The notes below the pieces were generated by a model, which had not been told where the DNA came from, searched no databases, and worked only from the letters and a program-made list of their open reading frames with translations. Shown here one piece after another: positions 5,083 to 51,699 of a stretch of 64,000 nt of DNA (positions are counted from its first letter, which is position 1; each line of letters opens with the position of its first letter). The DNA is from Antedon mediterranea (Eukaryota; Echinodermata; Crinoidea; Comatulida; Antedonidae). Both the position numbers and the translations under genes were made by a program. Location: assembly GCF_964355755.1 (NCBI RefSeq), contig NC_092680.1, positions 5,495,001 to 5,559,000 of the forward strand, read 5' to 3'.

Positions 5083-5708
5083 ATGACTAGTTATCGCAAA
5101 CTTATCCTTTTAATGTGCATTTTACACGGCTTCTTTGAGGTACATTCAAATAATGAGACTGAAGCTAGATCTGCAGACACTGACACGGCACCTAAAGACA
5201 CTGAAGTAACACGTACATACACTGAAGCATCACCTACATACACTGACCCAAAACCTACAGATACTGAAGCAACACCTACAGGCACTGATTTAACACCTAC
5301 AGGCACTGATTTAACACCTACAGACATTAAAGCATCACCTACAGACACTTACTCAACACCTACAGACACTTACTCAACACCTACAGGCACTGAAGCAACA
5401 CCTACATACACTGAAGCATCACCTACGGACAGTGACCCAACATCTGCAGACACTGAAGCAACACCTACAAACACTGAATCAACACCTACAGACACTGAAG
5501 CAACACCTACAGACACTGAAGCAACACCTACAGACAATGAAGCAACACCTACAGACAATGAAGGAACACCTACATATACTGAAGCAACATCTACAGGCAC
5601 TGAATCAACAGGTACACATGAGGATGGTAAGACAAGTGATGTCAGTTCAAGTGATTATCCATACTCAAGTGATAAATCAAGCGAAGTTCAAAATGACGAA
5701 CATACCGA
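5083..5708 (+). other. Copy B exon 1: signal peptide plus mucin-like VNTR
   Basis: The exon encodes a hydrophobic signal peptide ([18 protein letters not shown]) and then a Thr/Pro/Ser-rich stretch made of about 19 imperfect 7-residue units of the type TEATPTD (21-bp DNA unit), followed by an acidic Ser-rich linker. Such sequence is expected to be heavily O-glycosylated. It ends GA|GTAAGT in phase 2 and joins exon 2 to read HTEGYLITT, which puts MG1 directly after the linker. ATG 5083 has A at -3 and lies about 65 bp after a TATA box. The mirrored - strand reading frames here are repeat shadows. Confidence 0.88.
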
Positions 5709-8700
5709 GTAAGTAATCATTGTTTTAGTTTTGTATTTTAATTCCCAAGCACAGTCGTCGCAGGCATACAGTAGGCCTATTACATGAAATAGTGCCTAAT
5801 TAATATTGAAGGTAACCGATATATAAACCACGGTAATAGATTAGTAATTTCATTTCGAATGCGGTTTTATTACGGACAAGCATACTAACGTTTTCATATA
5901 CCCTGTATCTGGCATGATGATTAAATTGTTATACAACACAGACTTGCCAGGCCTATACATTATAGATATTGGTGTTTTCTATGATTTTTAGAGGATATCT
6001 TATAACTACATCGCAACTATGGATATCAGACAGTATAGAAATTATATGCGTTGCGTATCTTAAAAAACCTACAAACGTTGAAATCAGAGTAGAGAACACG
6101 TACAGTGATTGGTGGTATCTTAGATTTTCCATGTATCATTCACAAACATTCCATGAAGGCGGAAGCGATTGTTTCGAAGTAAAGGTAAAAGGAAACATAT
6201 TCTTATTCTATATATTTCTTTATGTTTTTAAACGGATATAAAAATTGTGTACGCTTCATTACCAACACTAAGCAAGTGCTACGGCATGGCGATTTAGTAG
6301 TGGGGTGATGTTATACAGGAAGTAATCAAAGCACAGTGTACATAATTCCCACCTACAAGCAGCACTCGTATACATCCATGCTCTTGAGGCTACTCATTAA
6401 GCTAATAGCCTGGCAAAAGATTTTGTTATTTAGTTTATTTGATCATTGAATACTATGATAATGCTACTTATTAACTAAAATAATGTAGGTTCCTGAAATG
6501 TCAGCACGGTACAGGTTGTCGGTGACATTGAGTGCACTTATAACGACTGCTGACGCAGAGATTGAACGGCAGATGAAAATCCGCATCTATAGGGAACAAG
6601 TGGAAACATACATACAGACTGACAAACCAAAATACAGTGCTGGACAAGAAGGTAACATGCTAAATGTAACAAGATTGATAATTTCAAATGTTGCTGTACA
6701 TGGGGCCTACTAGCAATCTATTTTGAAAACAAAAAGTACACATTATTCAATACACATTATAGACATGTAAAATAATTAATTGATTAAGAATGAAAATGCT
6801 TCCTCTATCGTCTGATGATTGAACATATTGGTATCAACATTTGTATAGGAAAAAAGGTAAGTGTTATGTTTTTCTTCATTTTCAGTTAAATTTCGAATGT
6901 TGTCCATCAAATCACCGTCATTAAAGGTTGTGAAGAACAATGTAAGTATAAAATAAATGTGATATCATTGCACGAGTGGTTGATGCAATAGTTGTCTATG
7001 CAATATTTAATTGTGAAGTAGTATACCTATTATTTTCAAGACAAGGTCAGGGTTTAAATTAAATAAGTGGAGTAGAACTTTTAAGGGTATGCATTCAAAT
7101 CTCAATCAAGTGTCCTCTTTGTCCAAAATATGTGTCCAAAAGGAGAGGTTCTATTTTGCAGTACACTTTTCTTCAGAAAACATATATGACGATTAAAAAC
7201 ATTTTGAAGTGTTAGGAACCGGCAAGGTTATAAAAACGTCCAAATTCTTTACAACATCATAAATCTACAAATTTTCGGGCCATAGTTAGTTACTTTTTAT
7301 CAGATACCAACAATTTAGTAGATGTTTGACTGTATTTTTTGTGTTGAAGATACCAAGCATCTGGATTGAAGCTCCGAATGACATTCGAGTTAGGCAGTGG
7401 GTAGATGTGAAAGCAGACGAGGGTCTTGTTGATCTACAGATGCTATTGTCTGATGAACCAATACTAGGGACGTGGACAATAAAAGCAATGGTTGCCGACA
7501 GAACAGTCACACAAACATTCGTTGTAGAGGAATACGGTAGGTCCATCAGTTGGAAACATACGTCTAAAGTAGACATTATTAAATTTATCTTCCGATTCCA
7601 TCAATCCAAATGACAAAGACCAAGCCAAGCAAAAAAGCTTGCCACACTCCACATATTGGAGAGGCATCGTTATAAGCCATTACTTGAGTGAGACGAACAT
7701 TTGAGTCTTTGTTGTTCCATATGATTTATAAAAGAGTTTTTTTTTTCAGTTTTACCAAAGTTTGAAATTCTGATTGCTACACCCACATCTATTTACGTCC
7801 GTGATGAAACTTTTAAAGTCAAAGTTTGCGGAATGTGAGTATAAACACGTTTTCTTTGGAATAATCATTAAAACAAAAGTTCTTTAAAAAAAAATGTTAT
7901 TTATACTTTCTCAATATTTCTTCATAAAGTGTCATTACGGCACAAGAAACCCATATCAAATGACTAATTTTCAAAATTCAATAGTATACATACATATGTA
8001 CTGTGTACTAAAATCACAATAATATAATAGGTTTCAATATTTAAATGAGTCGATTCGGGATTCTTATTATTTACAGCACCAGCAGAATCAGACTCACTAT
8101 AGATATAATTGTATTTTATGATTTTTTTTTCTAATATCTTCAAATTTTAGAATTCGTCAATGAAGAAAATAATTAAATGTCATCTGGAGTATTTGGTATT
8201 ACTGTCAAATTTTCATATTATGGGCCGTATTGTTAAATTATTAAATACTTATTATAGGTATACATACGGACAACCCGTCAGAGGATCTGTAAATTTTACC
8301 GTTTGTTTTAGACATTCACGTGTCGAATGTAACCCAGAAACTACTGTAGTCAAATATGCTAAAGTAAGTAAAATCTTGCTCGAGTTAATTGTATACTCAA
8401 TATAGACCGGAACATTAAATTAGCGCCCCCTCTGTCACTCTATGTACAGTTTCTGTAGGTAATTCATTTATGATTTATTTTTAGGATACTGGTTCAGATG
8501 GATGTGGTGAATTTGATTTGACTTCAGAAGAACTTAAATGGGACAGACCTTATTACTATTATTATGAAAGACAAAAATTATCTGTCAATGCAAATTTTAC
8601 TGAAGCTGGAACCGGTATGTAATAATTATTACTCTGTAATTGGAACGTCTTTGTTGTTAATGAAACGCATGTTAAGCGTGGTTCTCACTAGTGACGCAAC

Positions 8701-11700
8701 GCAAGGACGTAACGCAACGCAAGTGAATTAACCAATCACAAGCAATGGCTTATTCGCTTGTGATTGCTAACTGTCTATAACTTCGCTTGTCATTGGTTAA
8801 AACGCTTGCGTTCCGTTTACGTCCTTGCGTTACGTTCTAGTGGGAACCAAGCTTGAGATTATTAAAGTGATACATTAACGTTTTGTATACATTTTCAGAC
8901 ATAACTTTGACCAGCTCATCGCTGTCAACAACTATTAAAACAACGGCAGTACAAATAGAGATAACAGGTCTAAGCTATTACAAGCCCGGCATTGAATACA
9001 ATGGAAAGGTAAAAGACAATTGAGAAAAATTGTTCACGCTCCATAAGGCCAATTATATTAAAGTTGCGGTAAAGGCAGTTCAGGAAACTTGGTTAAATTT
9101 GATGTGTTGAACATCCACGCAATTGCTACTTAGAAGGTTAAAATAATATTTAATATTTGTTATACTGTACCTATTTTGACCTAAAATAAAAATAGTGGAA
9201 AGGTAGTTCAAGGATTCTAGCCAAAGTATGAACACATGTGTATTTATGTACATAACATGAACTATACTATTCGATGCGTATTTTTTTTAAATACGCTATT
9301 TAAAGATGTATTGTCCCCTTAAAAAAATATTTAGAACACAATTTTTTGTTGAATATGCCATTTTAATATAACATAATAGTTATCCACTTTGACCAAAAAT
9401 TGGATCGAAAAAAAAATGTATTTACCTGAAAAAAACTGTAATTTAAAGCAAAATTTGTCAAATTGGCCAGCTAATGGATTTTTGTTTGAATTTAACCATT
9501 TATTTTGGCATTTTAGAAGTAAAAACATTTTTTGTTCACGTTTTTTTTAAAGGAAGTGATAACTTCATTAAAACTACAGAATAACACATTAAAAGTCTGA
9601 TTTAATTAATCTTCATTGTTCATGTTTTCTTTAAGTGTATTGGATGTTTCAAATAGGCTATTTAAATAAGGATTTTAAACTTTGATATAGTACCGTATGG
9701 TTTCTATTTAATTCATTCCTTCATTCATCCTTTATTTAGCATTTAAAATCGAAATACATTTAAAACAAAGGTAACAAAAACAAGGCAGGTGGACATCTAA
9801 GGAGGCAAGGATAAGCAGTAGCAATTAAAATCGCTGTAGCTCGCAGGCTTACTTATCCATCCTTAGACATCCAGTACATAAAGATAAATAAAATACACAT
9901 TAATGATCCAAATATAAATAAATTCTAATTAAGTGACAATGTATTAAAACCGTTTAAGAATCAGTTCTCATTTTTTTTTTCAATTTTTGATTTTGAAAAT
10001 ATCCTATTTTGATTTCACAGGTCTTTATAAAGAATGTGGATGGAAGTCCAGCTAATGGTATTAATACAACAATACATATACAGGAAAAACGCGAATCTGA
10101 CGTAATCCATGTATTCAACAGCTTCTCGAATAAAGGAGTTGTAACATTTAGTTTTGATGCGCCTATTGATACGGCTATTACTTCTCTGCTAATTACGGTA
10201 ATTACAACCAGGAAAGAATGAAATTCCCTGTTATAACATCATTCGATGATATTAATTTTTATTCTTATTCATTATTAATTATTATTATCTGTCGCTATCG
10301 ATATTCAACAATAGATATAAGATATCATTTTTGTAGCTTTTGTTTTAAATCTATTATGATGTTTTGGAAAATAGCAGTTTGTCGTAGGGTTGGTGGAAAG
10401 AGATGTGTTACTTTATAACGTTATAACGTTGATTGTTATCTTGGTAATGCTCGCCTATGAACGCCTATCACCCTTTTTATTGGAGCACTACGTATATTCT
10501 AGGTAACAGCAGAAGGATATAAAACACAAACCTACGAAGATGTCTATGGGTATTATAGAATTAGAAACAACCCATCTAATACAAAGACAATTTCTGCCTT
10601 CTATTCGCCTAGTGGAAGTTTCCTGAACATCAAGCCAGTGCCAAATGAAATCAACTTTGGCGGTAGTCATACTTTTGATGTTGATTACACCATTCCGACT
10701 GGCGCTAACAAAACAATCAATGTTAAGTATATGGTAAGTGTTAATATAGTGTACTAGTTACTGTAAAATGTATAAAGGTTCGTGGAATCCTTGTATGTAC
10801 TTTAAAAACTGGCGGTAATAATCTCATTAATTTTAAAATGTATTCATTTTTCGACAAATGTATTTGATAAATTTAAACTCTATACAATAATTAATGTTTA
10901 TTGAATATAACTAGGTCATTGCTAGAGCTGCTGTAGCAACATTTGGCAGTTTAGAGGTGAAGATGCCTTCTTGTTCTCGTCAAGAGAAAAGATCTCTTCA
11001 GCTAATTTGGCCTACATACGATTATTTTATTTCCAGACCAGAAGATGAATCAGGTATATATATATATATTATGGATTTCAATATTTGCAGCAATAATGTT
11101 TTACTAAAGGGTTTGTATAGGTATTATATAGATTTACGTATGCAAAAAATGCGAAATCCAAAAATGGCTTTCATTTATTTTTTATTGTTTTTATCTTTTT
11201 CCTTCTGGCTTGAGAAACCTTGGTCTTTTTTTTTTTAAATATCCACACATTGGAAATCCAACTGCCATAGTGTTTTTTTAAAATATTTTTTAATCTGGGA
11301 ATAAATCCTTTCTTTGTATGCCTTATAGATTATACTTTATATATTACTTTATGGAATTTGTAAATTATTTTTTTTGTTTATTGCTTAAAAAACAAAAAAC
11401 AAATGGACCAGTCGCAATATAGTTAATATGGCAGAATACAATACCACCAGAATACATACTTCATTTCTTCTGTTGCAGTGATAGGATTGAAACCATTGCC
11501 ACCAACATGTCAATTCTCGTTTAAGTTACCTATTGATGTCAATTCTAAAATGTCACCAGACGCCAAACTTCTAATTTACTACGCTCGTGAGGATGGAGAA
11601 ATTGTTGCCGATTCAATTAAATTTAAAGTTGTCAGAGGTCTATCTAATCAGGTATTTTTGTCAGCTGAAACTGATCAGAATCCCGGTTGATCAAGAATTT

Positions 11701-14700
11701 TGAAATAATAAGAGTACCCAGGCTTAAAACAATTAATCTAATAATTATGTTTTTTTAATTGTTTTTAATGGTTTCCTCTCAAATCTATATAGGTAGGCAG
11801 GAGGGACAGCATGGGTATTTAGTATCCCATATATTTTATGGTTTTATATTTTTCATGATAATAAAAAATCTACGACGCGGTCACATTCATCTACAATACT
11901 ATTATTATTGAAATTCACCATTTAACGAACTTTTTGAAAAAATTGTAACATTCATTACACAAATAGGTTAAATTACAATTTGAAGAAAATATGACAAGGC
12001 CTGGAGACAAAACAATACTTCGTGTTCAGTCATCATCAAATTCACTGTGTGCTATTGGAATCGTAGATAAAAGTGTTGAACTCCTTGGAACAACTAACCA
12101 AATTACCAATGATAAGGTGAGTTTCTATGTTTTTGCTTTCATTAATGGATCCTGTTTCTTAATAGGAAACGTTTCTATCCTTCAGCTTTTATGCCTTTTA
12201 GTGGTTTCAATTAGGAATAATGTATTATAAGAACACGTTAATACGTTTATCGGACAAAATAATCCACGGCTTTACATTTGCTCATAAAAAATAGATAGTT
12301 TGTTTTTAGTAAACCCTCACCCCCACTTTTTTAATTTTTATACAGAAAAATTCAGTTGCAAATTCTAAACTCTAGATGTTTACATTTATTCCACACAGGT
12401 ATTCAATTCTTTAACAAACTATTCATATCAAAACTTTTACTACACTTCAAAATGTACTCGTAGCTTATTCATAAATAAACGATCAGAAGGCACTCCTACT
12501 CCACCACCACCTTCGAAGAGAGGGCACTTTTATCAAACTATTTACGTCAAAACGAAACATTTGGATAGTGCAACTGTTTTCTTGGTAAGTAAGATATATA
12601 TTTTAAACTAGTACTGTACTAACTATGGCGAAGCAAGGCAAACAGAGCGTAAGGGACCATAGTGGTCATTTAAGAGAGATGGCCGTTTACCAGAGGTGGT
12701 CAATTATGAGGTCCCTTACAAGCTTGAGGTGTGGTACTTTAAAAGATGTGGTTCCTCACAAGAGGTAGTGGTCGGTTACGAGAGCTGGTCGATAATAATA
12801 TAAGACGCGGTCTCTTACAAGAGGTGGTCGGTTATGTCGAGAAGCGGTCCCTTAAGAGAGAAGGTGGTCGTTTAAGAGAGGTGATCGTTACAAGAGGTGT
12901 TTGATTATGAGAAGCGGTCCCTTAGGAGAGGTGGTCGGTAATGAGGGTGTTTGCTTACGATGTATGTCGTTTTAGGGAGGTGGTCACTTTTTATGTTACA
13001 TTAGTGGTTAATGTTACATTAGTGGTTGATTTGTGTTACGTTAGTGGTTAATGGGCGTGTAGCGCAGTGTGTTGGACGTTCGACTACTGATCGTGAGATC
13101 GAGGTATAAATGGGAACCTGGTTAGATCATTTGTGTTTGCATTATAGGAGTATGTTTCCATATGTGTTTGATCCCAAAAAAATGACTAGGGTAATAATGT
13201 TTAGGCGCTTATAAATCCAGGATATTATTATTAATGTTACATTAGTGGTTTTGATATTTACGTTATAGTGGGTGATACTTAGTAGTAAGCTCTCTAGTTG
13301 TACACCAATTTATGTACAGTTTTATGATAAATAAAAGTACTTGGTGTACTGTGTTCATCACTACTTTACTTAAATGTTGCACTGAGTATAATTATGCATA
13401 CGACTCTACTTTATTTGTCACTGTTATTTTCAGAATGCTGGTGTTGCGTTTACGACAAGTTTAGATGTGGAAACAAGACCTTGCTATGAAATCACAGGTA
13501 ACTCAGTAGTAGTAAATCTTATGATGAAGACTAATGTGTTAGTTGTGTGGTTTTAACATTTGCTTATCACTTCAAAAATAATTTACAGTGGTGTATCTAG
13601 TAGTATTAGTATTAAAATGAATTAGTGGTATTAGGATAGTATCAAAACATGAGGCGGCGTTTAAATTATATTATTATGGTGACATGGCGGGGCCTTTAGT
13701 AGAATAAAATAAAAACCAGTCCTCCTTGTCATTAAATTTCTTAATTGGACTAAATATTTAATTGCCCCTATTTAGGCCCAAATGGGTTATTCTAATCTAA
13801 GCTTTGTTTTACCTGGTAAAACTTTTTCGACATTTCTGAAATTAAAATAAAATAATAAAATTTTGATTTGAATAAATGTATAGACATTATGTTATTTTGT
13901 TTTTTTTTTTTTTTTGTTTTTTTTTGTACTAACGTTTTTTGTTAGGGTTACATTTTTAAAGAACTTGTGCTTATTTTGTATCCCATTTTATTATCATATT
14001 ATTTGTATTGTATTTGTATATGTTTTTATATTGATTATGGAATAAAAATGTCGCATATTGATAGTAAATTTGGAATTGTAGTAGACTCCGTAACTAAAGC
14101 AAAACAGATAGCAGCAAATCCAACAGACGAAGTCGAAGTCAAAAAAGAAGAACATGCAGTCAACATAAGAACATATTTTCCAGAAACACTTTTGTGGCAA
14201 ATTAAAAGAACTCGGTAAGAATTCGAAAGTGATTATTGTACATACGCACATACATACATGTGGTAGGGATTTAATTTTTTAGATGGTCAGATATTGGTGT
14301 GTGTGTGTGTGTGTGTGCGTGTGTGTCTCTCTCTTGACAAGATAACGTCAAAACTCAACGGATCTTTACCAAATTTAAACCACAGATAGATATGTGGTCA
14401 CGGACGACTCAATTCAATTTTGGAGATATTCTGAACCAGGATCCCAATTCTGAACTGTTATTTTATTATTAAGTATAGGTAGTACATCGAAACTAGGCTA
14501 CAAGGCGGATTTTTATAACGATTTTTGATCCTGTATCTCTTGTTATTACTCTTGGCGGAGGTTGTGTACCGGTAATGCATCTGTATTCGTAATATTGCTT
14601 ATTGAACATTTTTGTTTTCAACACTAATATAAAAGCTGAAAATAAACTTCCTATGAATAAGGGGAAGCCAATGTCCAGATTCTGGAAGATGTTTGAGATG

Positions 14701-16568
14701 ACCGATTCCTCTACATTTGTTAGGGAGATAGTTGTCGCCTCTCAGTTTTCGCGAGCAGGCCCCTTATTTGTATGTCAACATCATGAATGCACGGTGCCTC
14801 AAAACGAATCGGCGACCTTCCACTCTCCTTTTTTGACAGCAAAATGAAATTAAGACTTTTTCATATTACTTTATTTTAAACGAATATTAATAATTGATAT
14901 AGGTAAGAATAAGTACGCCTTGACATAGTACTACTCTTGTCTAAGCATATATTAGCACACCTCCATTTCAGAAATTCTGAATCCGTCTCTGTTTGATACA
15001 ATTTCGATATGATTTGTATGCATAGGATAAATAGTTGAAACTTTTTTTATCTTTTTAAACTTTAAAGTGAAGAAGATGGCGTAGCCAAGTTTGATCTGAA
15101 AGTTCCTGATACGATCACCGATTGGAAAGCAAACGGATTCTGTATATCACCCGACAGTGACATTGGTATTGGAGAAACTACAACATTACGTGCATTTAAA
15201 CCGTTTTTCGTTTCTTTAACGCTTCCTTACTCGGTAATTCGCAACGAAAGTGTTCCATTGAAAGTCACGGTGTTTAACTACCTTGCTGACCAATGTCTTA
15301 TGGTAAGATATGATACATAATATGTATCTTACTTTTTAAATCAATTCGTATGTATATCAGTGTAAAATACAATATTTATAAACACGTGGTAATTACAACA
15401 AAATACTAACTTACACGTGATGTATGAGTACTTTAGTATGCTCTTGGAACCTGTCTAGCAAATATCTGTAATGAAAAGTGATTTTGTTAATGGCATTTAT
15501 TTTTTTAGGTCAAACTTGAGCTCAAGGAAAGTAGTAACTTTACAACATTGGGTAATGACTTTACACGTAAAGTGTGCGTTTGTGGAGGTGGGTCAAAGAC
15601 TGTCCATTACAGAATAGTATCACATACACTTGGACATGTTCCCATGACAGGTAATTTTCTTTTGTACACTACACCATTTCAAAAATTGCGCAAAACATGA
15701 AATCAATATGATACTATGAAATGGTTTAAATTATTGTAATGAAATATTGAACTAATTGTAATTAATTTACAATATAATATAAATTTATTTAAAAAATGTA
15801 ATATATAATATTTTCTGCTATGGTTCATTAAAATGTAGTTTCTGCTGTAACCAAGGGTTTCAGTAAAGCACTTGGTCGTAGAATGTGTGACGGTGAACCT
15901 GATCGCCCAGACAAACAATACATTGGCTTGACCGATGGAGTACAGCGTGATTTGCTTGTTGAGGTAAGCGAAAACTAAACATACAAACAATTGCGTATAA
16001 TAATTATATTATTATTATTGCACAACAATTGGTGCATACTAGAATCGGCGTATAACTGCACATACCCAACTACCCATACCATAAAGCGTGCTTACCACTA
16101 ACTGCCCATACACCAACTGCGCATATCACTAACTGAGCATACCACTAACTGCGTATTCCACTAACTGCGCATACCACATTGCATTTTCCTATCTTTCTAA
16201 CCTCCATTCATTACTCTATGTTATTGTATTTCAGTTTATTCTCATGTTACACACTGTACTAATATATCTAGAAATTAAAACTTTGTGTGTATTTTTTGTT
16301 AGCCTGAAGGGATAGAAAAGGATGAAACGCAGTCATCAGTTATATGTTTAAGCAGCAATGAAACGAACGAAAAAGGAAGCTATAAAGTAAACTTCCCTGA
16401 AAACATTGTACCTGGATCGGACAGAGTGAAATTACAATTAATTGGTAGGCCTATGTTCGTATGTGTTTGTAACAAAACGACGAGAACGATTGCGATCATT
16501 ATCTGATCATCAGGAATGAAAATCTGTTTCTGTGAAGGTCACATGAACCCCATATTGAACCTAAAACC

Positions 16569-16618
<50 letters not shown>

Positions 16619-19600
16619 CCCACAATACTTGCATTCACTCAATTTTAATAATTACAATGCACACAATTTAGTATATTCTCATTCTACGTCATATCCGCCT
16701 ATGTTCTTTTCAATATAATGTAAAGCGTCGGTGTAGGCTATACATAAATTCATTATAATGTATTCAATTTGAAAATGCTAATACGTTTGCGTGATACATA
16801 TATTTTTGTAGGAGATATAATGGGACCAGCTCTCAACAACATGAATCATCTAATCCGGTTACCAACTGGTTGTGGAGAACAGAATATTGTAAAAATGGCG
16901 CCAAACGTTTACGTCTTAAAATACCTTATAAACACAGGTCAAATCGAGGCTCGGCTAAAACAAACGATAGTTAACAACATAAGAGCAGGTGAGTTAATTG
17001 TTTCACAACCTACTGTGTGTTTGTTTCCTAAAATGAGATTTACAGCTACTTGTATACAATTTTAAAATAAAGGTTAATATTGTTCTACAACACTCACTAA
17101 TTTCAAATTTTCTTAATATTTTTGGAGAAACCATTCTCCGTCCTCAGCGGGTGTTGCCTGACTGAAGACTGATTGACTCCCTCCTTCTGGACGTAGATGG
17201 CGTCCTACGTGGTGTTTCTATTAGAGAGTCATAGACTTTGAAAGTTATCTGTATAAATATATAAATAGCCTCCCGTATTTTCCTGAGAATTAATTTGTCC
17301 TCTCGGCATAAAATCTTGACGTTAGAATTATCAATTTCGTAGCCTGTGGGTTTAAGGTGTTCAGCAATGGCAGACTGAATGGAGGGGGTTATTGCAATAT
17401 GTTCTAAATACGTTCCCTCAAAGACCTCTTTGTTTCGCCTATGTACACTTTGTCACAGCCTTTACAAGGAAGACGATAAACTAATCCTGATTTATCCTCA
17501 ATGGATAGGAGCGACAAGAATTTGACGAAGTGTCTGATGTGGTTTAAAGGCGGTGGGGGTACCGTATTGTCCATAAACCCGTTTAAGTTGCTCGAATATA
17601 CATTTAACGAAAGGAATCACCACCAGGATTTTTCTAGTACTAGATGTAGAAAGTTCTAGATTTGAATTCCGCTGGTGACTGGTGTTTCTTTACCGTGGCA
17701 CGCTTAAAACTCCAAATCTGCGTATCCACAGCGTTTTAATGCCGATTTAACATGTTTAATTTATTGTCTTTATCAACCTGATGTGTGACCACAGTATCAG
17801 CTCCATCAAAAAGAGTCCTAATCACACTAAGTTTGTGCTCTAGTGGGTGATGGGAGTCAAAGGCCAGGTATTGGTCAGTGTGAGTTGGTTTTCTATACAC
17901 ACTGACCTCTAACCTCCCATCGAATTGTCTTTTCACAAGCGTATCAAGAAAGGGCAACCGTCCGTCTTTTTCAGGATCGTTAGTGAACTTTATGTGTGGA
18001 TTCTGGCTGTTAATATGTTCAGTAAATTCTTAAATTTTGGATCTGTCGATAATCACATAAGTGTCGTCCACGTATTGAAACCACACTTTCGGACCACTTT
18101 TCGCAGATTTTAGAGCTTTAAGTTCAAAATCTTCGATATACATGTTCGCGATGATTGGACTAACAGGAGACCCCATAGCGCAACCATGATCTTTCAAAAG
18201 TCTATGACTCTCCAATAGAAACACCAAGTAGGACGCCACCTACGTCCAGAAGTAGGGAGTCAATTTAGTCGCTGAGGAAGCCAAAAAATAAATTACGAAA
18301 ATTTGAAATTAGTGAGTGTTGTAGAACAGTATTAACCTTTATTTTAATATTTTCCACCGATGCAGCCCAATCGAAACATTACGATTTTCCAAGCATTCGA
18401 GAACCAGGATAAAGTATGTGAACTGTGTTGAGCAATGTGCTCTATTGATAAGATATGCTTCTCTGATTTAAAGATGTATCTTATTGTATTGAAATGAGAG
18501 AGGTAGACAGAAAACAATTAAAAAAATTATTTAATTCTAGGCTATCAACGAGAGCTGAATTATCGCAGACAAGATGGATCATATAGTGCTTTTGGTCAAT
18601 CCGACTACGACGGTAGTACCTGGTAAGTTGTTGAAGAGCTGATTGACAAGTATACAAGAAAAATAAACAAAAATATGTAAATGTGTTCTTCTATTACCAC
18701 AATTATTGCATACATGCAAACAAATATTTTTTTTAATGAATTAGAGTAAGTAGATACAAATGTTGAATTCTCAATATACCTGGATTTTTCTTTTAAAATA
18801 ACAATAATCATTATATCTATAGGTTAACAGCGTTCGTATTAAGAACGTTTGCAGAATCTGATGAATTCATTGAAATAGATAGCAACCTAATGAGAGAGAG
18901 TCTGTCGTGGTTAATAAACCAACAAAAGAAGAAAACAGGTTGTATCATGTCAAGAGGAACTCTATTTAACAAGGCTATGAAGGTATGCCTAGGCCTATTT
19001 GACGTCTTACACAAACGAATGCATAAAGCAAAGTTGTTCAGAATATTTGGTAGCACTTTTAAACAGCTTTAAGCATAGCACATTCATTTCGTCCTCAATG
19101 TAATGACATCGACTTCAATATCTAGGCCTACTTAGGGCGAATGATATTCAGTATAACTTTCACTTTTTCTCATTTTTCGATAGGGTGGTGTTTCAGATGA
19201 AATAACGTTGACCGCATATACTTTGATAACAATGACTGAAGCTGTTGGTCAGAAGTTGGTAAATATTAAGTTTATTGTCTAAATAATTTATAAAAGAACA
19301 TAATCCAAAGCATTCAAATAGGTAATTTTTTTATATTCTTTCATTATTATTTCTCAGAACAGAGGTATTGATCTGGCCAGTAAATGTCTTGTCAATCGAT
19401 GGGATGACATTGATTCGGGTATTCGGAATGACCCTTATTCGGTTGCATTGCTGGCGTACGCATTCAAACTCTCTAAGAACGTCCGTTATCACGAAGTGCT
19501 TAGCCAATTAAATGAACTTGCAATTGAAGAAAGTAAGATTCAATATAATTATCCTTTAAAGAAATAATCTCTACAATTATTGCTTTGTCAATTTCAAAAT

Positions 19601-22428
19601 AAATATAATAGTTAAACATTTACATTATTTTAACAGATGGATTGAAACACTGGGAACGTCCTGAAGGTCTAAGACCTAAGAACACATGTTATTACTGCCG
19701 AGCATCTTCAGCGGAGGTAGAAATGACTGCTTACGCTCTTTTAGCGCTTGATTTAGAAGTTGGCGCCGACCAAATAGAAGCATTAAAGATCTCTAAATGG
19801 CTTATTAAACAACAAAATGCCAATGGTGGATATTCGTCTACCCAGGTTTGTACAGTCATCACTTTATTGTTACTTAGGTAAAAGGTAAGGTCGAAACCTA
19901 AGCTAATGCGGCCGTGGTGCCCATCTCCATTTCTTTGGGCCAGACTCCACTAATTGTGTAGGTTTGTGGGAGGTACGCCACTCCTCCCGCACAAACGAGT
20001 ATGATTTACCTTCCCATTACTTACATACCGGTACCCATTTCTATCACCGGGGTGGAGAGGAACAATGTGGATAAAGAATCTTGCTCAAGGACCCAACACT
20101 GCAGTGCACGGGCCGGGGCTTGAACCACCGGCAACCTATTAATTAAGTCCAATGCACTAGCCACTGCACCACAGTGCTCCACATATTGTTACTTAATTAT
20201 GTCGTACCATTGCTAAAAACTAACTCAATAACTTTTTTTTACAATGTATTTAATCTAACAGGACACAGTGATTGCGTTAAAAGCACTGTCATATTTTTCC
20301 GAGGCACTTTACACAGGGGAAACGACCCAGATGAGTATCACAGTGACCTCGTCGGCTGGAGGTGAAACCGAAACATTTGAATTAGACTCCTCTAATCGCC
20401 TGTTACTTCAGAGAATGGACATAGAAAAAGCGCCAACAACGGTTGATATAGAGGCTTCCGGGACTGGGTGTGCTCTTATACAGGTACTATACATATGTAT
20501 ATTATAAAAGAACAAACGAAAATAGAGAAACTCTGAACACAATCTAGTAGAAGTAAAATGAAAAGTGAAAATAAGACACCTAGAAAGTTTCTAGAATTAT
20601 AGTATATATATAATTTTATATATCCTAGGTTCAAACACTCTACAACATCTATGAAAAACCAGAAGTGGAAGTAGAACCATTCAGTATCAGTGTCGAATCA
20701 ATCCCAGATGAAAAGCTGGGATGCCAAAAACAGACTGTCCGAATTACCGTATCGTAAGTTATAATTTATAACAAAACAGTAACGAAGAAAAAAATATTCG
20801 CTGCGTCTCAGGATGCAGATAAAGCAATGATTATAAGGTTGATACACCTGGATACGCCACAAACAGCAAATACTACTGTAGTATAACCTAAAAGTAGATT
20901 TGGACACACAAAAAGATAATAATTATCTATAAAATTATCATTTTTTTCTAATTGTTGATATTCAGTTCAATTTAATTCCACACAATACACAATAACATAC
21001 AGGATAATAAATACAATGAAGTAATCATGTGGGGAGAGGGTCATAAAGTCAGAAAGACTTTAAATTTGACCCACCCCAACATATAACATTACGAATACGA
21101 AAAGAAAACAAAATACATAAACTAATGATAAATAAAAGAAAACAAAGCTACAATTTCTATTTAAACCACTTTATCCAATCTTAACTGGTCTTATGAAATA
21201 CGTTCATCATATCTTGAAAGTAAATAGTTCTTGTAGTATACTAATTTCAATTCGACAGGTACAATGGTGAAGACCAAGTATCCAGTATGTCTATTGTAGA
21301 GGTTAAGCTTGTTTCTGGATATTATGCGGATAAAGATTCACTCAAAAGTCAGGACACACTATCGATAAGTCAGGAAGCAGTGCTTATTAAAACACTTGGA
21401 TTCAAGAGATATGAAGCTAATGGTAACATGCTCGAGTTTTATTTTGATGAGGTAAGTCATTCAAATATAATTAATATACTGTATATTGTTTTAAATGTTG
21501 TGTGTTTTCTATGCCATATATTACTATCTTCTGTATTATAGAATATTAGTTATTGTTATTCCTCCTAAAGCTTGGTTCCCACTAGTGACGCAACGTTACG
21601 CAATCTACGCAACGTAAGCAAATGCCCTTCTAATAATTTGCCCCGCCTGCGTGAAATCAAACATGCGATGTTTGCAGCCCTATTGCGTCGTAGGTTCCCA
21701 CTTCTGATTACGCAATACATCACTTTGCGTTGCGTTCTAGTGGGAATCACGATTTCTAGGCATACAAATTGCCGATATATGAAATAATTTTTTTGTAAGC
21801 CTACTCAGTTATGTAGAAGAAATAAAATTCATATTCGTTTCAATTTCAGTTTACCTCTGAACCAATAAGTTTTGAATTTGATGTGGTACAAGAATTAAAA
21901 GTAAAGAATTCTAAGCCTGGAATAGTAACCGTGTATGACTATTATGAAGCAGGTAGGACACAATTGTATCAATATTGTATTAAAACAAATATTTATATAC
22001 ATTCAACAAAAATGTATATTGTTGATCCATGTCATACATTCTTGTTATTCTCTCTATTTTTTTATTTTTTATTATCGCCAATTGTTTTCTTTGTTTTAAG
22101 GTGACTAATATTTTTTAAAAAACATATTTTAAAAACATAAATATTCTCCTTCCATACGATTTAATTTATTTATATGTTTCATATTCTGTTTTAATGTGTG
22201 TGAGTTGTGCGGAGATTACATATTAAAAACTAGCAACTTATCCTGCTTACTTACTACCATAGTAGGCGGAAATATAAAAATAAGAAAGATGCTGAATTTG
22301 ATGTTGAGAAGAATGAGGAGAAAAAGAAGAAGATCGTGATGATATTGTATATACATTTAATGGTATTTTGTTTACTTTGTCTTTTTACAGAATTGAAGTC
22401 TGTTAAATCCTACAAGTTTTGTCGGTAG
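5083..22428 (+). CDS. A2M-like thioester protein with mucin-like N-terminus, copy B (32 exons, about 1703 aa)
   Basis: Likely a secreted protease-trapping/opsonic protein of the A2M family. Exons: 5083-5708, 5992-6184, 6489-6651, 6886-6941, 7350-7536, 7750-7834, 8258-8363, 8485-8614, 8899-9008, 10021-10197, 10503-10733, 10915-11053, 11479-11651, 11967-12116, 12399-12584, 13434-13497, 14082-14214, 15068-15302, 15509-15650, 15839-15963, 16303-16444, 16812-16988, 18541-18622, 18823-18982, 19184-19258, 19358-19532, 19637-19845, 20262-20483, 20629-20753, 21259-21451, 21850-21952, 22391-22428. Phases agree throughout (5112 nt). Residues, roughly: signal 1-22, Thr/Pro repeats 40-180, MG1-MG5 209-735 ([26 protein letters not shown]), MG6 and bait 735-970 (IRTYFPET), MG7 to 1095, CUB/thioester domain 1096-1590 (GCGEQ at 1204-1208), receptor-binding domain to 1703. 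Asn1320 (LFNKAMK) occupies the reactivity-tuning position. The exon 17 acceptor is the doubtful point. Confidence 0.88.
8675..8853. mobile_element. Foldback MITE in intron 8 of copy B
   Basis: 179 bp, ends AGCGTGGTTCTCACTAG and CTAGTGGGAACCAAGCT, flanked by TTA (8672-8674) and TGA (8854-8856). Copy C has the empty site ATGTTAGATT, so a 3-bp TTA target was duplicated. Confidence 0.85.
9721..9960. repeat. Possible dispersed repeat with foldback core in intron 9 of copy B
   Basis: The long intron 9 (9009-10020) contains arms GGACATCTAAGGA...GGATAAG (9791-9815) and CTTATCCATCCTTAGACATCC (9852-9872) that can pair, within a block rich in TTTATTTAGCATTTAAAA-type sequence. Homologous blocks lie near 28,170-28,400 (C) and 47,090-47,330 (D). 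The rest of intron 9 is AT-rich with no coding signal. Confidence 0.4.
12626..13050 (+). repeat. Degenerate GAGGTGGTC minisatellite in intron 15 of copy B
   Basis: About 400 bp built from variants of AAGAGAGGTGGTCGGTTA and GAGAAGCGGTCCCTTA, followed by ATGTTACATTAGTGGTT repeats. Copy C has the same block at 31074-31490; D lacks it. Confidence 0.75.
13053..13232 (+). mobile_element. SINE in intron 15 of copy B
   Basis: Begins GGGCGTGTAGCGCAGTGTG (A-box-like), then GATCGTGAGATCGAGG, GTATAAATGGGAACCTGG, and ends with an AGGCGCTTATAAATCCAG tail and ATT repeats. It lies inside a run of ATGTTACATTAGTGGTT repeats. The same copy is at 31500-31679 in C. Confidence 0.7.
14082..14214 (+). other. Copy B exon 17: bait region end and IRTYFPET motif
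   Basis: The 3' part is conserved in all copies ([12 protein letters not shown], then [17 protein letters not shown]); in the A2M family this YFPET motif follows the bait region that target proteases cut. The 5' part differs between copies; here it starts [12 protein letters not shown]. The acceptor homologous to that of copy C (AG 14063-14064) would give a stop at 14079-14081, so the next AGs must be used: exon start 14082, or 14085 (tandem TAGTAG). Neither has a good pyrimidine tract. Confidence 0.65.
14602..14847 (+). other. Unexplained conserved reading frame in intron 17 of copy B
   Basis: An 81-codon frame ([19 protein letters not shown], then [17 protein letters not shown]) kept at high identity in C (33025-33261) and D (51984-52208). 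In D, 1 nt fewer in GTTTTCGCG shifts the second half to [18 protein letters not shown], which reads more like protein. It has no place in the A2M fold, so it is probably a fossil of an inserted gene or transposon. I do not recognise the family. Confidence 0.3.
16080..16176 (+). repeat. About 16-bp minisatellite in intron 20 of copy B
   Basis: About six imperfect copies of ACTAACTGCGCATACC. The same array is at about 34530-34622 in C and 53570-53655 in D. Confidence 0.8.
16570..16617 (+). repeat. (ATA)n microsatellite in intron 21 of copy B
   Basis: About 16 ATA repeats in B against about 4-5 in C and D at the homologous place. Confidence 0.9.
16812..16988 (+). other. Copy B exon 22: thioester exon
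   Basis: Encodes [20 protein letters not shown] followed by CGEQN. GCGEQ (16868-16882) is the internal Cys-Gln thioester site of A2M/C3/TEP proteins, preceded by the usual RLPTG. The matching exons are 35268-35444 in C and 54302-54478 in D, identical in the motif. Confidence 0.95.
17062..18347 (-). mobile_element. Truncated Penelope-like element in intron 22 of copy B
   Basis: On the - strand, 18239-18030 encodes the end of a reverse transcriptase ([25 protein letters not shown]); 17957-17736 continues with [10 protein letters not shown] and HPLEHKL; and about 17530-17420 encodes a GIY-YIG endonuclease ([18 protein letters not shown]). RT followed by GIY-YIG is the Penelope-like order. The upstream RT motifs are missing and the frame is broken, so it is dead. 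In B the join CATGTTAAATCGGCATTAAA reads [11 protein letters not shown] without interruption. The ends form a long inverted repeat (17062-17245 with 18193-18347) that includes the start of the truncated RT. Confidence 0.88.
19877..20184 (-). mobile_element. tRNA-derived SINE in intron 27 of copy B
   Basis: The same insertion as in copy A, with ATTGTTACTTA at 19866-19876 and 20185-20195. It has small internal deletions relative to A. Confidence 0.85.
21569..21753. mobile_element. Foldback MITE in intron 30 of copy B
   Basis: The same insertion as in copy A, about 185 bp, with the right end slightly decayed (CACGAT). Confidence 0.75.
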
Positions 22429-23696: not shown

Positions 23697-24262
23697 ATGA
23701 CTAGTTATCGCAAACTTATCTTTTTATTGTGCATTTTACACGGCTTCTTTGAGGTACATTCAAATAATGAGACTGAAGCTAGATCTGCAGACACTGACAC
23801 GGCACCTAAAGACACTGAAGTAACACCTACATACACTGACCCAAAACCTACAGACACTGAAGCAACACCTACAGGCATTGATTTAACACTTACAGGCACT
23901 GATTTAACACCTACAGGCACTGATTTAACACCTACAGAAATTAAAGCATCACCTACAGACACTTACTCAACACCTACAGACACTGAAACAACACCTACAG
24001 GCACTGAAGCAACACCTACATACACTGAAGCAACACCTACATACACTGAAGCAACACCTACAAACACTGAATCAACACCTACAGACAATGAAGGAACACC
24101 TACAGACAATGAAGGAACACCTACATATACTGAAGCAACATCTACAGGCACTGAATCAACAGGTACACATGATGAGGATGGTAAGACAAGTGATGTCAGT
24201 TCAAGTGATTATCCATACTCAAGTGATAAATCAAGCGAAGTTCAAAATGACGAACATACCGA
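23697..24262 (+). other. Copy C exon 1: signal peptide plus mucin-like VNTR
   Basis: The same exon as in B, with about 16 heptad units and one extra Asp codon in the linker (DEDG against EDG). The 60-nt difference from B is exactly three 21-bp units minus one codon, so the frame is kept. The signal peptide reads IFLLCIL, as in D. Confidence 0.86.
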
Positions 24263-27200
24263 GTAAGTAATCATTGTTTTAGTTTTGTATTTTAATTCCC
24301 AAGCACAGTCGTCGCAGGCATACAGTAGGCCTATTACATGAAAGAGTGCCTAATTAATATTGAAGGTAACCAATATATAAACCACAGAAAAGGTAATAGA
24401 TTAGTAATTTCATTTCGAATGCGGTTTTATTACCGACAAACATACTAAAGTTTTCATATACCCTGTATCTGGCATGATGATTAAATTGTTATACAACACA
24501 GACTTGCCAGGCCTATACATTATAGATATTGGTGTTTTCTATGATTTTTAGAGGATATCTTATAACTACATCGCAACTATGGATATCAGACAGTATAGAA
24601 ATTATATGCGTTGCGTATCTTAAAAACCTACAAACGTTGAAATCAGAGTAGAGAACACGTACAGTAATTGGTGGTATCCTAGATTTTCCATGTATCATTC
24701 ACAAACATTCCATAAAGGCGGAAGCGATTGTTTCGAAGTAAAGGTAAATGGAAACATATTCTTATTCTATATATTTCTTTATGTTTTTAAACGGATATAA
24801 AAATTGTGTACGCTTCATTACCAACACTAAGCAAGTGCTACGGCATGGCGATTTAGTAGTGGGGTGATGTTATACAGGAAGTAATCAAAGCACAGTGTAC
24901 ATAATTCCCACCTCCAAGCAGAACTCGTATACATCCATGCTCTTGAGGCTACTCATTAGGCTAATAGCCTGGCAAAAGATTTTGTTATTTAGTTTATTTG
25001 ATCATTGAATACTATGATAATGCTACTTATTAACTAAAATAATGTAGGTTCCTGAAATGTCAGCACGATACAGTTTGTCGGTGACATTGAGTGCACGTAT
25101 AACGACTGCTGACGCAGAGATTGAACGGCAGATGAAAATCCGCATCTATAGGGAACAAGAAGAAACATACATACAGACTGACAAACCAAAATACAGCGCT
25201 GGACAAGAAGGTAATGCGATAAATGATAAAGATTGATAATTTCAAATGTCACTGTACATAGGGTCCTACTAGTAATATTTTCCGAAAACAAACACATTAT
25301 TAATAATGTGTTTGTTCAACACACATTATAGACATGGTAATCCCATGGTTATTGTGTTGTTAAAGTAAATATGTAAAATAATTATAATTGATTAAAAATG
25401 AAAATGCTTCATCTATCGTCTGATGATGACCGTATTTATATCACCATTTGTAAAAAAAAAAAAAAGAAATACTGAAGTGTTACATGTTTCTCGTCATTTT
25501 CAGTTAAATTTCGAATGTTGTCTATCAAATCACCGTCATTAAAGGTTGTGAAGAACAATGTAAGTATAACAATAAATGTGATATCATTGCGCGAGTGGTT
25601 GATGCAATAGTTGTCTATGCAATATTTAATTGTGAAGCAGTATACCTATTATTTTCAAGACAAGGTCAGGGTTTAAATTAAATAAGTGGAGTAGAACTTT
25701 TAAGGGTATACATTCGAATCTCAATCAAGTGTCCACTTTGTCCAAAACATGTGTCCAAAAGGAGAGGTTCTATTTTGCAGTAGAATTTTCTTCAGAAAAC
25801 ATTTGACGATTAAAAACATTTTAAGTGTTAGGAACCGGCAAGGTTATAAAAAACGCCCAAATCCTCTACAACATCATGAATCTACAAATTTTCGGGTCAT
25901 AGTTAGTTACTTTTTATCAGATACCAACAATTCAGTAGATGTCTTACTGCATTTTTTGTGTTGAAGATACCAAGCATCTGGATTGAAGCTCCGAATGACA
26001 TTCGAGTTAGGCAGTGGGTAGATGTGAAAGCAGACGAGGGTCTTGTTGATCTACAGATGCTATTGTCTGATGAACCAATACTAGGGACGTGGACAATAAA
26101 AGCAATGGTTGCCGACAGAACAGTCACACAAACATTCGTTGTAGAGGAATACGGTAGGTCCATCAGTTGGAAACATACGTCTAAAGTAGACATTATTAAA
26201 TTTATCTGCCGATTCCATCAATCCAAATGACAAAGACCAAGCCAAGCAAAAAAGCTTGCCACACTCTACATATTGGAGAGGCGTCGTTATAAACCATTAC
26301 TTGAGTGAGACGAACATTTGAGTCTTTGTTGTTCCTTATGATTTATAAAAGAGTTTTTTTTTTTTCAGTTTTACCAAAGTTTGAAATTCTGATTGATACA
26401 CCCTCATCTATTTACGTCCGTGATGAAACTTTTAAAGTCAAAGTTTGCGGAATGTGAGTATAAACACGTTTTCTTTGGAATAATCATTAAAACAAAAGTT
26501 CTTTAAAACAAATTGTATTTATACTTTCTCAATATTTCTTTATAAAGTGTCATTACGGCACAAGAAGCCAATATCAAATGACTAATTTTCAAAATTCAAT
26601 AGTATACATACATATATGTACTGTATACTAAAATCACAATAATATAATATGTTTCAATATTTAAATGAGTCGATTCGGGATTCTTATTATTTACAGCACC
26701 AGCAGAATCTGACTCACTATAGATATAATTGTACTTTATGATTTTTTTTTTCTAATATCTTCAAATTTTAGAATTCGTCAATGAAGAAAATAATTAAATG
26801 TCATCTGGAGTATTTGGTATTACTGTCAAATTTTTATATTATGGGCCGTATTGTTAAATTATTAAATACTTATTATAGGTATACATACGGACAACCCGTC
26901 AGAGGATCTGTAAATTTTACCGTTTGTTTTAGACATTCACGTGACGATTGTAACCCAGAAACTACTGTAGTCAAATATGCTAAAGTAAGTAAAATCTTGC
27001 TCGAGTTATTTGTATACTCAATATAGACCGGAACATTAAATTAGCGCCCCCCCCCCCCCCCCTGTCGCTCTATGTACAGTTTCTGTAGGTAATTCATTTA
27101 TGATTTATTTTTAGGATACTGGTTCAGATGGATGTGGTGAATTTGATTTGACTTCAGAAGAACTTAAATGGGACAGACCTTATTACTATTATTATGAAAG

Positions 27201-30200
27201 ACAAAAATTATCTGTCAATGCAAATTTTACTGAAGCTGGAACCGGTATGTAATAATTATTACTCTGTAATTGGAACGTCTTTGTTGTTAATGAAACGCAT
27301 GTTAGATTATTAAAGTGATACATTAACGTTTTGTATACATTTTCAGACATAACTTTGACCAGTTCAACGCTGTCAACAACTATTAAAACAACAGCAGTAC
27401 AAATAGAGATAACAGGTATAAGCTATTACAAGCCCGGCATTGAATACAATGGAAAGGTAAAAGACAATTGAGAAAAATTGTTCACGCTCCATAAGGCCAA
27501 TTATATTAAAGCTGCGGTAAAGGCAGTTCAGGAAACTTGGTTAAATTTGATGTGTTGAACATCCACGCAATTGCTACTTAGAAGGTTAAAATAATATTTA
27601 ATATTTGTTATACTGTACCTATTTTGACCTAAAATAAAAATAGTGGAAATGTAGTTCAAGGATTCTAGCCAAAGTATGAACACATGTGTATTTATGTACA
27701 TAACATGAACTATACTATTCGATGCGTATTTTTTTTAAATACGCTATTTAAAGATGTATTGTCCCCTTAAAAAAATATTTAGAACACAATTTTTGTTGAA
27801 TATGCCATTTTAATATAACATAATAGTTATCCACTTTGACCAAAAATTGGATCGAAAAAAAAATGTATTTACCTGAAAAAAACTGTAATTTAAAGCAAAA
27901 TTTGTCAAATTGGCCAGCTAATGGATTTTTGTTTGAATTTAACCATTTATTTTGGCATTTTAGAAGTAAAAACATTTTTTGTTCACGTTTTTTTTAAAGG
28001 AAGTGATAACTTCATTAAAACTACAGAATAACACATTAAAAGTCTGATTTAATTAATCTTCATTGTTCATGTTTTCTTTAAGTGTATTGGATGTTTCAAA
28101 TAGGCTATTTAAATAAGGATTTTAAACTTTGATATAGTACCGTATGGTTTCTATTTAATTCATTCCTTCATTCATCCTTTATTTAGCATTTAAAATCGAA
28201 ATACATTTAAAACAAAGGTAACAAAAACAAGGCGGGTGGACATCTAAGGAGGCAAGGATAAGCAGAAGCAATTAAAATCGCTGTAGCTCGCAGGCTTACT
28301 TATCCATCCTTAGACATCCAGTACATAAAGATAAATAAAATACACATTAATGATCCAAATATAAATAAATTCTAATTAAGTGACAATGTATTAAAACCGT
28401 TTAAGAATCAGTTCTCATTTTTTTTTTCAATTTTTGATTTTGAAAATATCCTATTTTGATTTCACAGGTCTTTATAAAGAATGTGGATGGAAGTCCAGCT
28501 AATGGTATTAATACAACAATACATATACAGGAAAAACGCGAATCTGACGTAATCCATGTATTCAACAGCTTCTCGAATAAAGGAGTTGTAACATTTAGTT
28601 TTGATGCGCCTATTGATACGGCTATTACTTCTCTGCTAATTACGGTAATTACAACCAGGAAAGAATGAAATTCCCTGTTATAACATCATTCGATGATATT
28701 AATTTTTATTCTTATTCATTATTAATTATTATTATCTGTCGCTATCGATATTCAACAATAGATATAAGATATCATTTTTGTAGCTTTTGTTTTAAATCTA
28801 TTATGATGTTTTGGAAAATAGCAGTTTGTCGTAGGGTTGGTGGAAAGAGATGTGTTACTTTATAACGTTATAACGTTGATTGTTATCTTGGTAATGCTCG
28901 CCTATGAACGCCTATCACCCTTTTTATTGGAGCACTACGTATATTCTAGGTAACAGCAGAAGGATATAAAACACAAACCTACGAAGATGTCTATGGGTAT
29001 TATAGAATTAGAAACAACCCATCTAATACAAAGACAATTTCTGCCTTCTATTCGCCTAGTGGAAGTTTCCTGAACATCAAGCCAGTGCCAAATGAAATCA
29101 ACTTTGGCGGTAGTCATACTTTTGATGTTGATTACACCATTCCGACTGGCGCTAACAAAACAATCAATGTTAAGTATATGGTAAGTGTTAATATAGTGTA
29201 CTAGTTACTGTAAAATGTATAAAGGTTCGTGGAATCCTTGTATGTACTTTAAAAACTGGCGGTAATAATCTCATTAATTTTAAAATGTATTCATTTTTCG
29301 ACAAATGTATTTGATAAATTTAAACTCTATACAATAATTAATGTTTATTGAATATAACTAGGTCATTGCTAGAGCTGCTGTAGCAACATTTGGCAGTTTA
29401 GAGGTGAAGATGCCTTCTTGTTCTCGTCAAGAGAAAAGATCTCTTCAGCTAATTTGGCCTACATACGATTATTTTATTTCCAGACCAGAAGATGAATCAG
29501 GTATATATATATATATTATGGATTTCAATATTTGCAGCAATAATGTTTTACTAAAGGGTTTGTATAGGTATTATATAGATTTACGTATGCAAAAAATGCG
29601 AAATCCAAAAATGGCTTTCATTTATTTTTTATTGTTTTTATCTTTTTCCTTCTGGCTTGAGAAACCTTGGTCTTTTTTTTTTTAAATATCCACACATTGG
29701 AAATCCAACTGCCATAGTGTTTTTTTAAAATATTTTTTAATCTGGGAATAAATCCTTTCTTTGTATGCCTTATAGATTATACTTTATATATTACTTTATG
29801 GAATTTGTAAATTATTTTTTTTGTTTATTGCTTAAAAAACAAAAAACAAATGGACCAGTCACAATATAGTTAATATGGCAGAATACAATACCACCAGAAT
29901 ACATACTTCATTTCTTCTGTTGCAGTGATAGGATTGAAACCATTGCCACCAACATGTCAATTCTCGTTTAAGTTACCTATTGATGTCAATTCTAAAATGT
30001 CACCAGACGCCAAACTTCTAATTTACTACGCTCGTGAGGATGGAGAAATTGTTGCCGATTCAATTAAATTTAAAGTTGTCAGAGGTCTATCTAATCAGGT
30101 ATTTTTGTCAGCTGAAACTGATCAGAATCCCGGTTGATCAAGAATTTTGAAATAATAAGAGTACCCAGGCTTAAAACAATTAATCTAATAATTATGTTTT

Positions 30201-42702: not shown

Positions 42703-43223
42703 ATGACTAGTTATCGCAAACTTATCTTTTTATTGTGCATTTTACACGGCTTCTTTGAGGTACATTCAAATAATGAGACTGAAGCTAGATCTGCAGACAC
42801 TGACACGGCACCTAAAGACACTGAAGTAACACCTACATACACTGACCCAAAACCTACAGACACTGAAGCAACACCTACAGGCATTGATTTAACACTTATA
42901 GGCACTGATTTAACACCTACAGACATTAAAGCATCACCTACAGACACTTACTCAACACCTACAGACACTGAAACAACACCTACAGGCACTGAAGCAACAC
43001 CTACATACACTGAAGCATCACCTACGGACACTGGCCCAACATCTGCAGACACTGAAGCATCACCTACAGACAATGAAGGAACACCTACATACACTGAAGC
43101 AACATCTACAGGCACTGAATCAACAGGTACACATGAGGATGGTAATACAAGTGATGTCAGTTCAAGTGATTATCCATACTCAAGTGATAAATCAAGCGAA
43201 GTTCAAAATGACGAACATACCGA
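42703..43223 (+). other. Copy D exon 1: signal peptide plus mucin-like VNTR
   Basis: About 14 heptad units; 105 nt (five 21-bp units) shorter than B and in frame. The signal peptide and linker are otherwise nearly identical to the other copies. Confidence 0.86.

Positions 43224-51667: not shown

Positions 51668-51699
<32 letters not shown>

What the first reader, a model, noticed from the sequence alone, without database searches (positions are those of the whole stretch)
13434..14214. Paralogue divergence concentrated in the bait exon
Most exons of B, C and D are near-identical, but the first part of exon 17 differs completely: [12 protein letters not shown] (B), [17 protein letters not shown] (C), [18 protein letters not shown] (D), each joined to the same [21 protein letters not shown]. 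In A2M this is the protease-cut bait, so each copy may trap different proteases. Length also varies (133, 163, 181 nt).
Basis: partly seen in the sequence, partly recalled or inferred. Interest (0 to 1): 0.75.

Follow-up and report, generated by a model that had tools for sequence, protein, structure and literature searches.

The report
Hypervariable bait exon in A2M array
A row of four near-identical animal genes for alpha-2-macroglobulin, a protein that traps protein-cutting enzymes, differs most sharply in the short piece those enzymes must cut; bait variation of this kind is already known, but here it far exceeds the change in the surrounding non-coding DNA, and a second gene cluster in the same genome shows the same pattern.

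Summary
B, C and D are tandem alpha-2-macroglobulin-type genes; a fourth copy, A, lies mostly upstream of the window. The exon is the bait exon: its conserved tail aligns with human A2M immediately after its bait. The exon is 133/163/181 nt (205 in A), always in phase. Over about 55 nt its 5' part differs by 24-28% plus indels between B, C and D, while flanking introns differ mostly by 1-3% and neighbouring exons by 0-3%. Relaxed constraint alone cannot explain change faster than introns. An independent TEP cluster on another chromosome shows the same pattern. 'Differs completely' is too strong: the stretches are homologous and B/D share AKQIAA. Silent sites are raised too, so dN/dS is not clearly above 1, and gene conversion is evident: genealogies switch around this exon. 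Every bait keeps a lysine, and B, C and D share a KK pair, so 'each traps different proteases' is untested. B's exon needs a shifted splice acceptor, and C as assembled has a 1-nt frameshift in exon 2. Bait hypervariability is already known, so this is a new member of a known kind, in which tandem gene copies do what exon arrays do in Biomphalaria TEP2.

The parts
5083..21952 (+). Gene copy B, A2M-type TEP (signal peptide and mucin-like exon 1 to the receptor-binding domain; last exon(s) not modelled)
   Evidence: Exon-by-exon tblastn and alignment with GT-AG splice sites; A2M domains
23697..40976 (+). Gene copy C; 1-nt deletion in exon 2 as assembled (AAAAAA to AAAAA)
42703..59996 (+). Gene copy D; all modelled exons open
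12399..12584 (+). B exon 15: end of the bait-region domain with a variable proline run (C 30846-31031, D 49767-49952)
13434..13497 (+). B exon 16, [21 protein letters not shown], identical protein in A-D (C 31881-31944, D 50978-51041); the cysteine corresponds to the one just before the human A2M bait
   Evidence: placement against human A2M also from general knowledge
14065..14119 (+). Hypervariable stretch of B; its first 17 nt lie before the predicted B acceptor
14082..14214 (+). B bait exon, 133 nt: [44 protein letters not shown]; acceptor shifted 17 nt
32509..32671 (+). C bait exon, 163 nt: [54 protein letters not shown]
51405..51585 (+). D bait exon, 181 nt: [60 protein letters not shown]
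15068..15302 (+). B exon after the bait ([14 protein letters not shown]...), start of the A2M domain proper (C 33479-33713, D 52443-52677)
16812..16988 (+). B thioester exon with GCGEQ (same motif in A, C and D)

Best explanation
Four tandem A2M-type protease-trap genes share one scaffold, with a thioester GCGEQ and an asparagine at the catalytic position, and differ mainly in the bait. Shown: the bait exon's 5' part diverges far faster than introns and other exons and keeps frame and C-terminal tail, and this recurs in a second cluster. Shown: genealogies of the copies switch around the bait exon, and a nearly identical B-C tract ends about 390 bp before it, so the array has been reshuffled and homogenised by unequal exchange or gene conversion. 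Inferred: selection keeps or renews bait differences while the scaffold is homogenised, with in-frame tandem duplication, substitution and breakpoints as raw material. Inferred: a protease cuts the bait, the chain retracts, the cage closes and the thioester couples to the protease, so different baits extend the range of proteases or cutting rates.
For: Homology: concatenated exons hit human A2M at 5.7e-143, ahead of CD109 (1.6e-106) and mosquito TEP1 (1.1e-46), with [18 protein letters not shown] aligned to EEPHTETVRKYFPETWIW at the end of the human bait. Pfam: A2M_BRD, A2M, TED, A2M_recep, MG2-MG4. Asn in GTLFNKAMK aligns to A2M GSLLNNAIK. Excess divergence over introns: B-C P 2.8e-10, C-D 1.4e-8, B-D 1.1e-6. 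Replicate: a chromosome C8 pair has 27/71 substitutions plus 82 gap columns in the bait against 51/443 in adjacent introns and 4/123 in the exon tail, P 2e-7. Frame kept in all four copies. In-frame tandem duplications (15, 15 and 9 nt) in three baits. Genealogy switch: 30 of 31 four-way informative sites from 11.1 kb to 14,087 are AD|BC, then AC|BD at 14,105-14,115, and AB|CD dominates from 15.4 kb on. Human A2M works with its 39-residue bait wholly replaced and tolerates shortening (PMC9352918), so 30-54 residue baits are plausible.
Against: dN/dS in the bait is not significantly above 1 and silent sites are raised. The substitution counts rest on about 50 aligned bases and on the alignment. 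No transcript supports B's shifted acceptor; C's exon 2 frameshift may make C a pseudogene. A lysine in the bait tail is shared by all copies. No expression or cleavage data. A at about 54 residues is longer than human by 15, in the range where lengthened human A2M begins to collapse.
Confidence: 0.68

Rival explanations
1. No current selection for diversity: the bait differences are old divergence, and gene conversion has recently homogenised the rest of the genes, with tracts that happen to end near the bait.
For: B-C near identity (0-0.4%) over 9.1-13.6 kb ends about 390 bp before the exon; genealogy switch around the exon; raised silent divergence in the bait; Anopheles TEP1 divergence is attributed to gene conversion (PMC2576239).
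Against: Introns immediately on both sides, outside the near-identical B-C tract, differ by only 2-3% against 28% in the bait, so tract ends would have to fall within tens of bases of the exon on both sides; the C8 cluster shows the same placement independently.
Confidence: 0.17
2. Relaxed constraint only: the bait sequence is free to vary because no particular residue is needed.
For: A2M stays functional with a Gly-Ser bait (PMC9352918).
Against: Relaxed constraint cannot exceed the neutral rate, yet the bait differs about ten times more than adjacent introns in B-C.
Confidence: 0.06
3. Copies B and/or C are decaying pseudogenes, so their bait differences carry no function.
For: B has lost the frame of the ancestral acceptor; C has a 1-nt deletion in exon 2.
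Against: All other modelled exons are open with splice sites; D and A are intact and also differ in the bait; C's lesion is a homopolymer indel that may be a sequencing error.
Confidence: 0.06
4. Assembly artefact: allelic haplotypes laid in tandem.
For: Near-identical ~19 kb units; the animal may be highly polymorphic (assumption).
Against: Four units, no gaps, different genealogies along the unit.
Confidence: 0.03

Closest known systems
Biomphalaria glabrata BgTEP2/BgA2M/BgCD109 alternative bait exons (PMC7016707)
   Same: Same region of the protein; variable length and composition followed by a conserved C-terminal part of the exon
   Different: There one gene chooses among up to 12 mutually exclusive exons; here no second bait exon was found per gene and variation sits in tandem gene copies
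Drosophila Tep2, Chlamys farreri TEP and shrimp A2M-2 bait isoforms (cited in PMC7016707); tick A2M bait splice variants (cited in PMC2685406)
   Same: Diversity confined to the bait or bait-like region
   Different: Made by alternative splicing
Mammalian alpha-macroglobulin bait regions (Sottrup-Jensen 1989, cited in PMC7016707)
   Same: Bait much more diverse than the scaffold among related inhibitors
   Different: Between genes and species of mammals; compared here at the level of about 95-97% identical tandem copies including introns
Anopheles TEP1/TEP5/TEP6 gene conversion (PMC2576239)
   Same: TEP paralogues mosaic through genetic exchange
   Different: There the high-divergence part is the 3' half of the gene, including the thioester domain

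Membership tests
Alpha-2-macroglobulin (protease-inhibiting A2M within the TEP superfamily) | Macroglobulin domains, bait-region domain, A2M, thioester and receptor-binding domains in order | tested here: met
   (MG2, MG3, MG4, A2M_BRD, A2M, TED, A2M_recep, all above their cut-offs)
Alpha-2-macroglobulin (protease-inhibiting A2M within the TEP superfamily) | Intact thioester motif GCGEQ | tested here: met
   GCGEQN in A-D
Alpha-2-macroglobulin (protease-inhibiting A2M within the TEP superfamily) | Asn rather than His at the thioester catalytic position (amine reactivity) | tested here: met
   TLFNKAMK aligned to A2M SLLNNAIK; meaning from PMC7864068 abstract and general knowledge
Alpha-2-macroglobulin (protease-inhibiting A2M within the TEP superfamily) | Bait of roughly 25-40 or more residues just before [V/I]R.YFPET | tested here: met
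   About 30-54 residues between the cysteine and IRTYFPET
Alpha-2-macroglobulin (protease-inhibiting A2M within the TEP superfamily) | Inhibits proteases by bait cleavage and entrapment | not testable with these tools
   Needs recombinant protein
Complement C3-like | Anaphylatoxin domain with clustered cysteines in place of the bait | tested here: not met
   No cysteine in exon 17 of A-D; the C4 chromosome cluster does show it
Alternatively spliced bait-exon TEP (BgTEP2-like) | Several mutually exclusive bait exons in one gene | tested here: not met
   One FPET exon per gene and no other match in the genome; very divergent exons could be missed

The most novel reading that the evidence does not exclude
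The genome carries a germline mechanism that repeatedly renews bait exons in tandem A2M genes (in-frame slippage duplications plus exchange breakpoints at the exon) while conversion keeps the scaffold uniform, giving a protease-trap repertoire built from gene copies in at least two clusters.
Probability: 0.2. Interest if true: 0.65.

Novelty: new member of a known kind. Interest (0 to 1): 0.42.

Why it matters
In invertebrates bait diversity has been described chiefly through alternative splicing. Here tandem copies that are about 95-97% identical, introns included, isolate the bait as a stretch changing well above the neutral background, in two independent clusters of one genome. That makes a clean natural set for asking whether bait sequence alone sets which proteases an A2M catches, and whether host-parasite conflict over proteases drives it.

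Tried and rejected
A search for donors of the variable stretches elsewhere in the genome gave none. Extra or mutually exclusive bait exons: none found. The strong-looking acceptor at 13946 in B (poly-T, TACTAAC) is out of phase with exon 16 and was rejected. An open stretch between exons 17 and 18 (14629-14844, [12 protein letters not shown]...) is conserved in B, C and D but not found in A and broken in D, so it was taken as intron. A single concatenated reading frame failed because at least one small exon between the exons modelled as E7 and E8 was not found, so work stayed exon by exon. dN/dS as a proof of positive selection: inconclusive. Slippage as sole source of bait change: B, C and D show no significant tandem duplication.

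Full report
What the region is. It holds three full copies (B, C, D) and the end of a fourth (A) of an alpha-2-macroglobulin-type thioester protein gene, all on the + strand with units of about 18.5-19 kb. Concatenated exons match human A2M best (5.7e-143), before CD109 and mosquito TEP1, and Pfam gives the A2M domain order, including the bait-region domain. GCGEQ is present in all copies, and the catalytic position carries Asn as in A2M.

The observation. Exon 17 was rebuilt in all four copies: B 14082-14214, C 32509-32671, D 51405-51585, A -3169..-2965, that is 133, 163, 181 and 205 nt, all leaving the same phase. The tail ([18 protein letters not shown] in B-D) aligns with human A2M EEPHTETVRKYFPETWIW, and the preceding exon's cysteine with the one before the human bait (P690-T728; PMC9352918; the register of the cysteine is partly from general knowledge). 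Counted in that way the baits are about 54 (A), 30 (B), 40 (C) and 46 (D) residues, against 39 in man.

Is it more than chance? Over the variable ~55 nt, B-C, C-D and B-D show 13/46, 13/46 and 13/55 substitutions plus indels; neighbouring exons show 0-3%. More telling, the introns on either side differ by only 16/560 and 16/801 in B-C; the excess in the bait has P 2.8e-10 (B-C), 1.4e-8 (C-D) and 1.1e-6 (B-D). D's upstream intron is the exception to the low background: it differs from B and C by about 9% and lacks about 185 bases. Lack of constraint cannot push a coding stretch above its own introns, so relaxed constraint is not enough. The effect also appears in a separate tandem TEP cluster on C8: 27/71 substitutions and 82 gap columns in the bait against 51/443 in adjacent introns and 4/123 in the exon tail. 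A single paralogue on C1 shares A's tail [20 protein letters not shown] with an entirely different bait.

What makes the differences. The stretches are homologous, not foreign: C and D begin EH[N/H][V/M]ER, B and D end AKQIAA, and none has a donor elsewhere. Three baits (A, and two on C8) hold significant in-frame tandem duplications of 15, 15 and 9 nt. The copies are mosaics: of the four-way informative sites from 11.1 kb to 14,087, 30 of 31 join B with C; sites 14,105-14,115 join B with D; from about 15.4 kb on C joins D. The nearly identical B-C tract (0-0.4%) ends near 13,672, about 390 bp before the exon. So exchange between copies is shown, and its switch zone includes the bait exon, though sites between 14.2 and 15.6 kb are mixed and the exact breakpoint is not fixed.

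Selection. In the rest of the coding sequence dN/dS is 0.30-0.42. In the variable stretch B-C gives pN 0.35 and pS 0.13, C-D pN 0.31 and pS 0.46; none is a significant excess within the stretch. Raised silent change points to tract replacement, old divergence or a high local mutation rate besides amino-acid selection. I judge maintained or renewed diversity under selection most likely, because two clusters show it at the same place, but codon counts do not prove it.

Caveats on the copies. In C a run of six A in exon 2 is five, shifting the frame as assembled; this may be a sequencing error. A and D are open in all exons modelled; a few small exons could not be placed.

Function. Proteases cutting an A2M bait release the chain from a central channel and close the trap (PMC9352918). 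All baits keep a lysine in the shared tail (KK in B-D), while large hydrophobic residues (F, L, Y, W, M) number 9 (A), 0 (B), 2 (C) and 6 (D). The likely outcome is overlapping, not separate, ranges: shared trypsin-like cutting with copy-specific chymotrypsin-like cutting. This is inference.

What is known. Bait or bait-like regions are diversified by alternative exons in Biomphalaria TEP2 (12 exons), Chlamys TEP, Drosophila Tep2 and shrimp A2M (PMC7016707), and differ between snail strains (PMC9363628). TEP gene conversion is known in Anopheles (PMC2576239). In this locus one bait exon per gene was found, so copies take the place of alternative exons. That is a new member of a known kind.

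Noticed in passing
5083-5708 (B), 23697 on (C), 42703 on (D): Exon 1 encodes a signal peptide followed by a mucin-like stalk of 7-residue PTDTEAT-type repeats whose number differs between copies (exon 626, 566, 521 nt; A 410), joined in phase to MG1; to my knowledge unusual for an A2M.
   Followed up: partly
exon 2 of C, about 24550-24746: Single-base deletion in a run of six A shifts the frame of copy C; pseudogene or sequencing error.
   Followed up: partly
40438-40602 and 59467-59631: Exon in the C-terminal part of C and D lacks 12 residues (around [11 protein letters not shown]) present in A and B.
   Followed up: no
49993-50758 against 12625-13201: The intron before exon 16 in D has a sequence unrelated to that in B and C (B/C hold degenerate GAGGTGGTC-type repeats); an insertion or replacement.
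   Followed up: no
17144-18239, minus strand, and the same place in C and D: Frames that look like remains of a Penelope-like retroelement (GIY-YIG and reverse transcriptase fragments) in a thioester-region intron of B, C and D; named by eye.
   Followed up: no
61047-64000: Frames that look like Ig domains with a possible transmembrane stretch next to the A2M array on the + strand, and a similar one near 63.5 kb; named by eye.
   Followed up: no
L060-L063, L071 (chromosome C4): Separate TEP genes with a cysteine-rich, anaphylatoxin-like segment before FPETWIF in several of them, thus C3-like.
   Followed up: partly
L064-L066 (chromosome C8): Second A2M-like tandem cluster with hypervariable baits, including a 15-nt repeat coding PGMGR in L066 and a 9-nt ELT repeat in L065.
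   Followed up: yes
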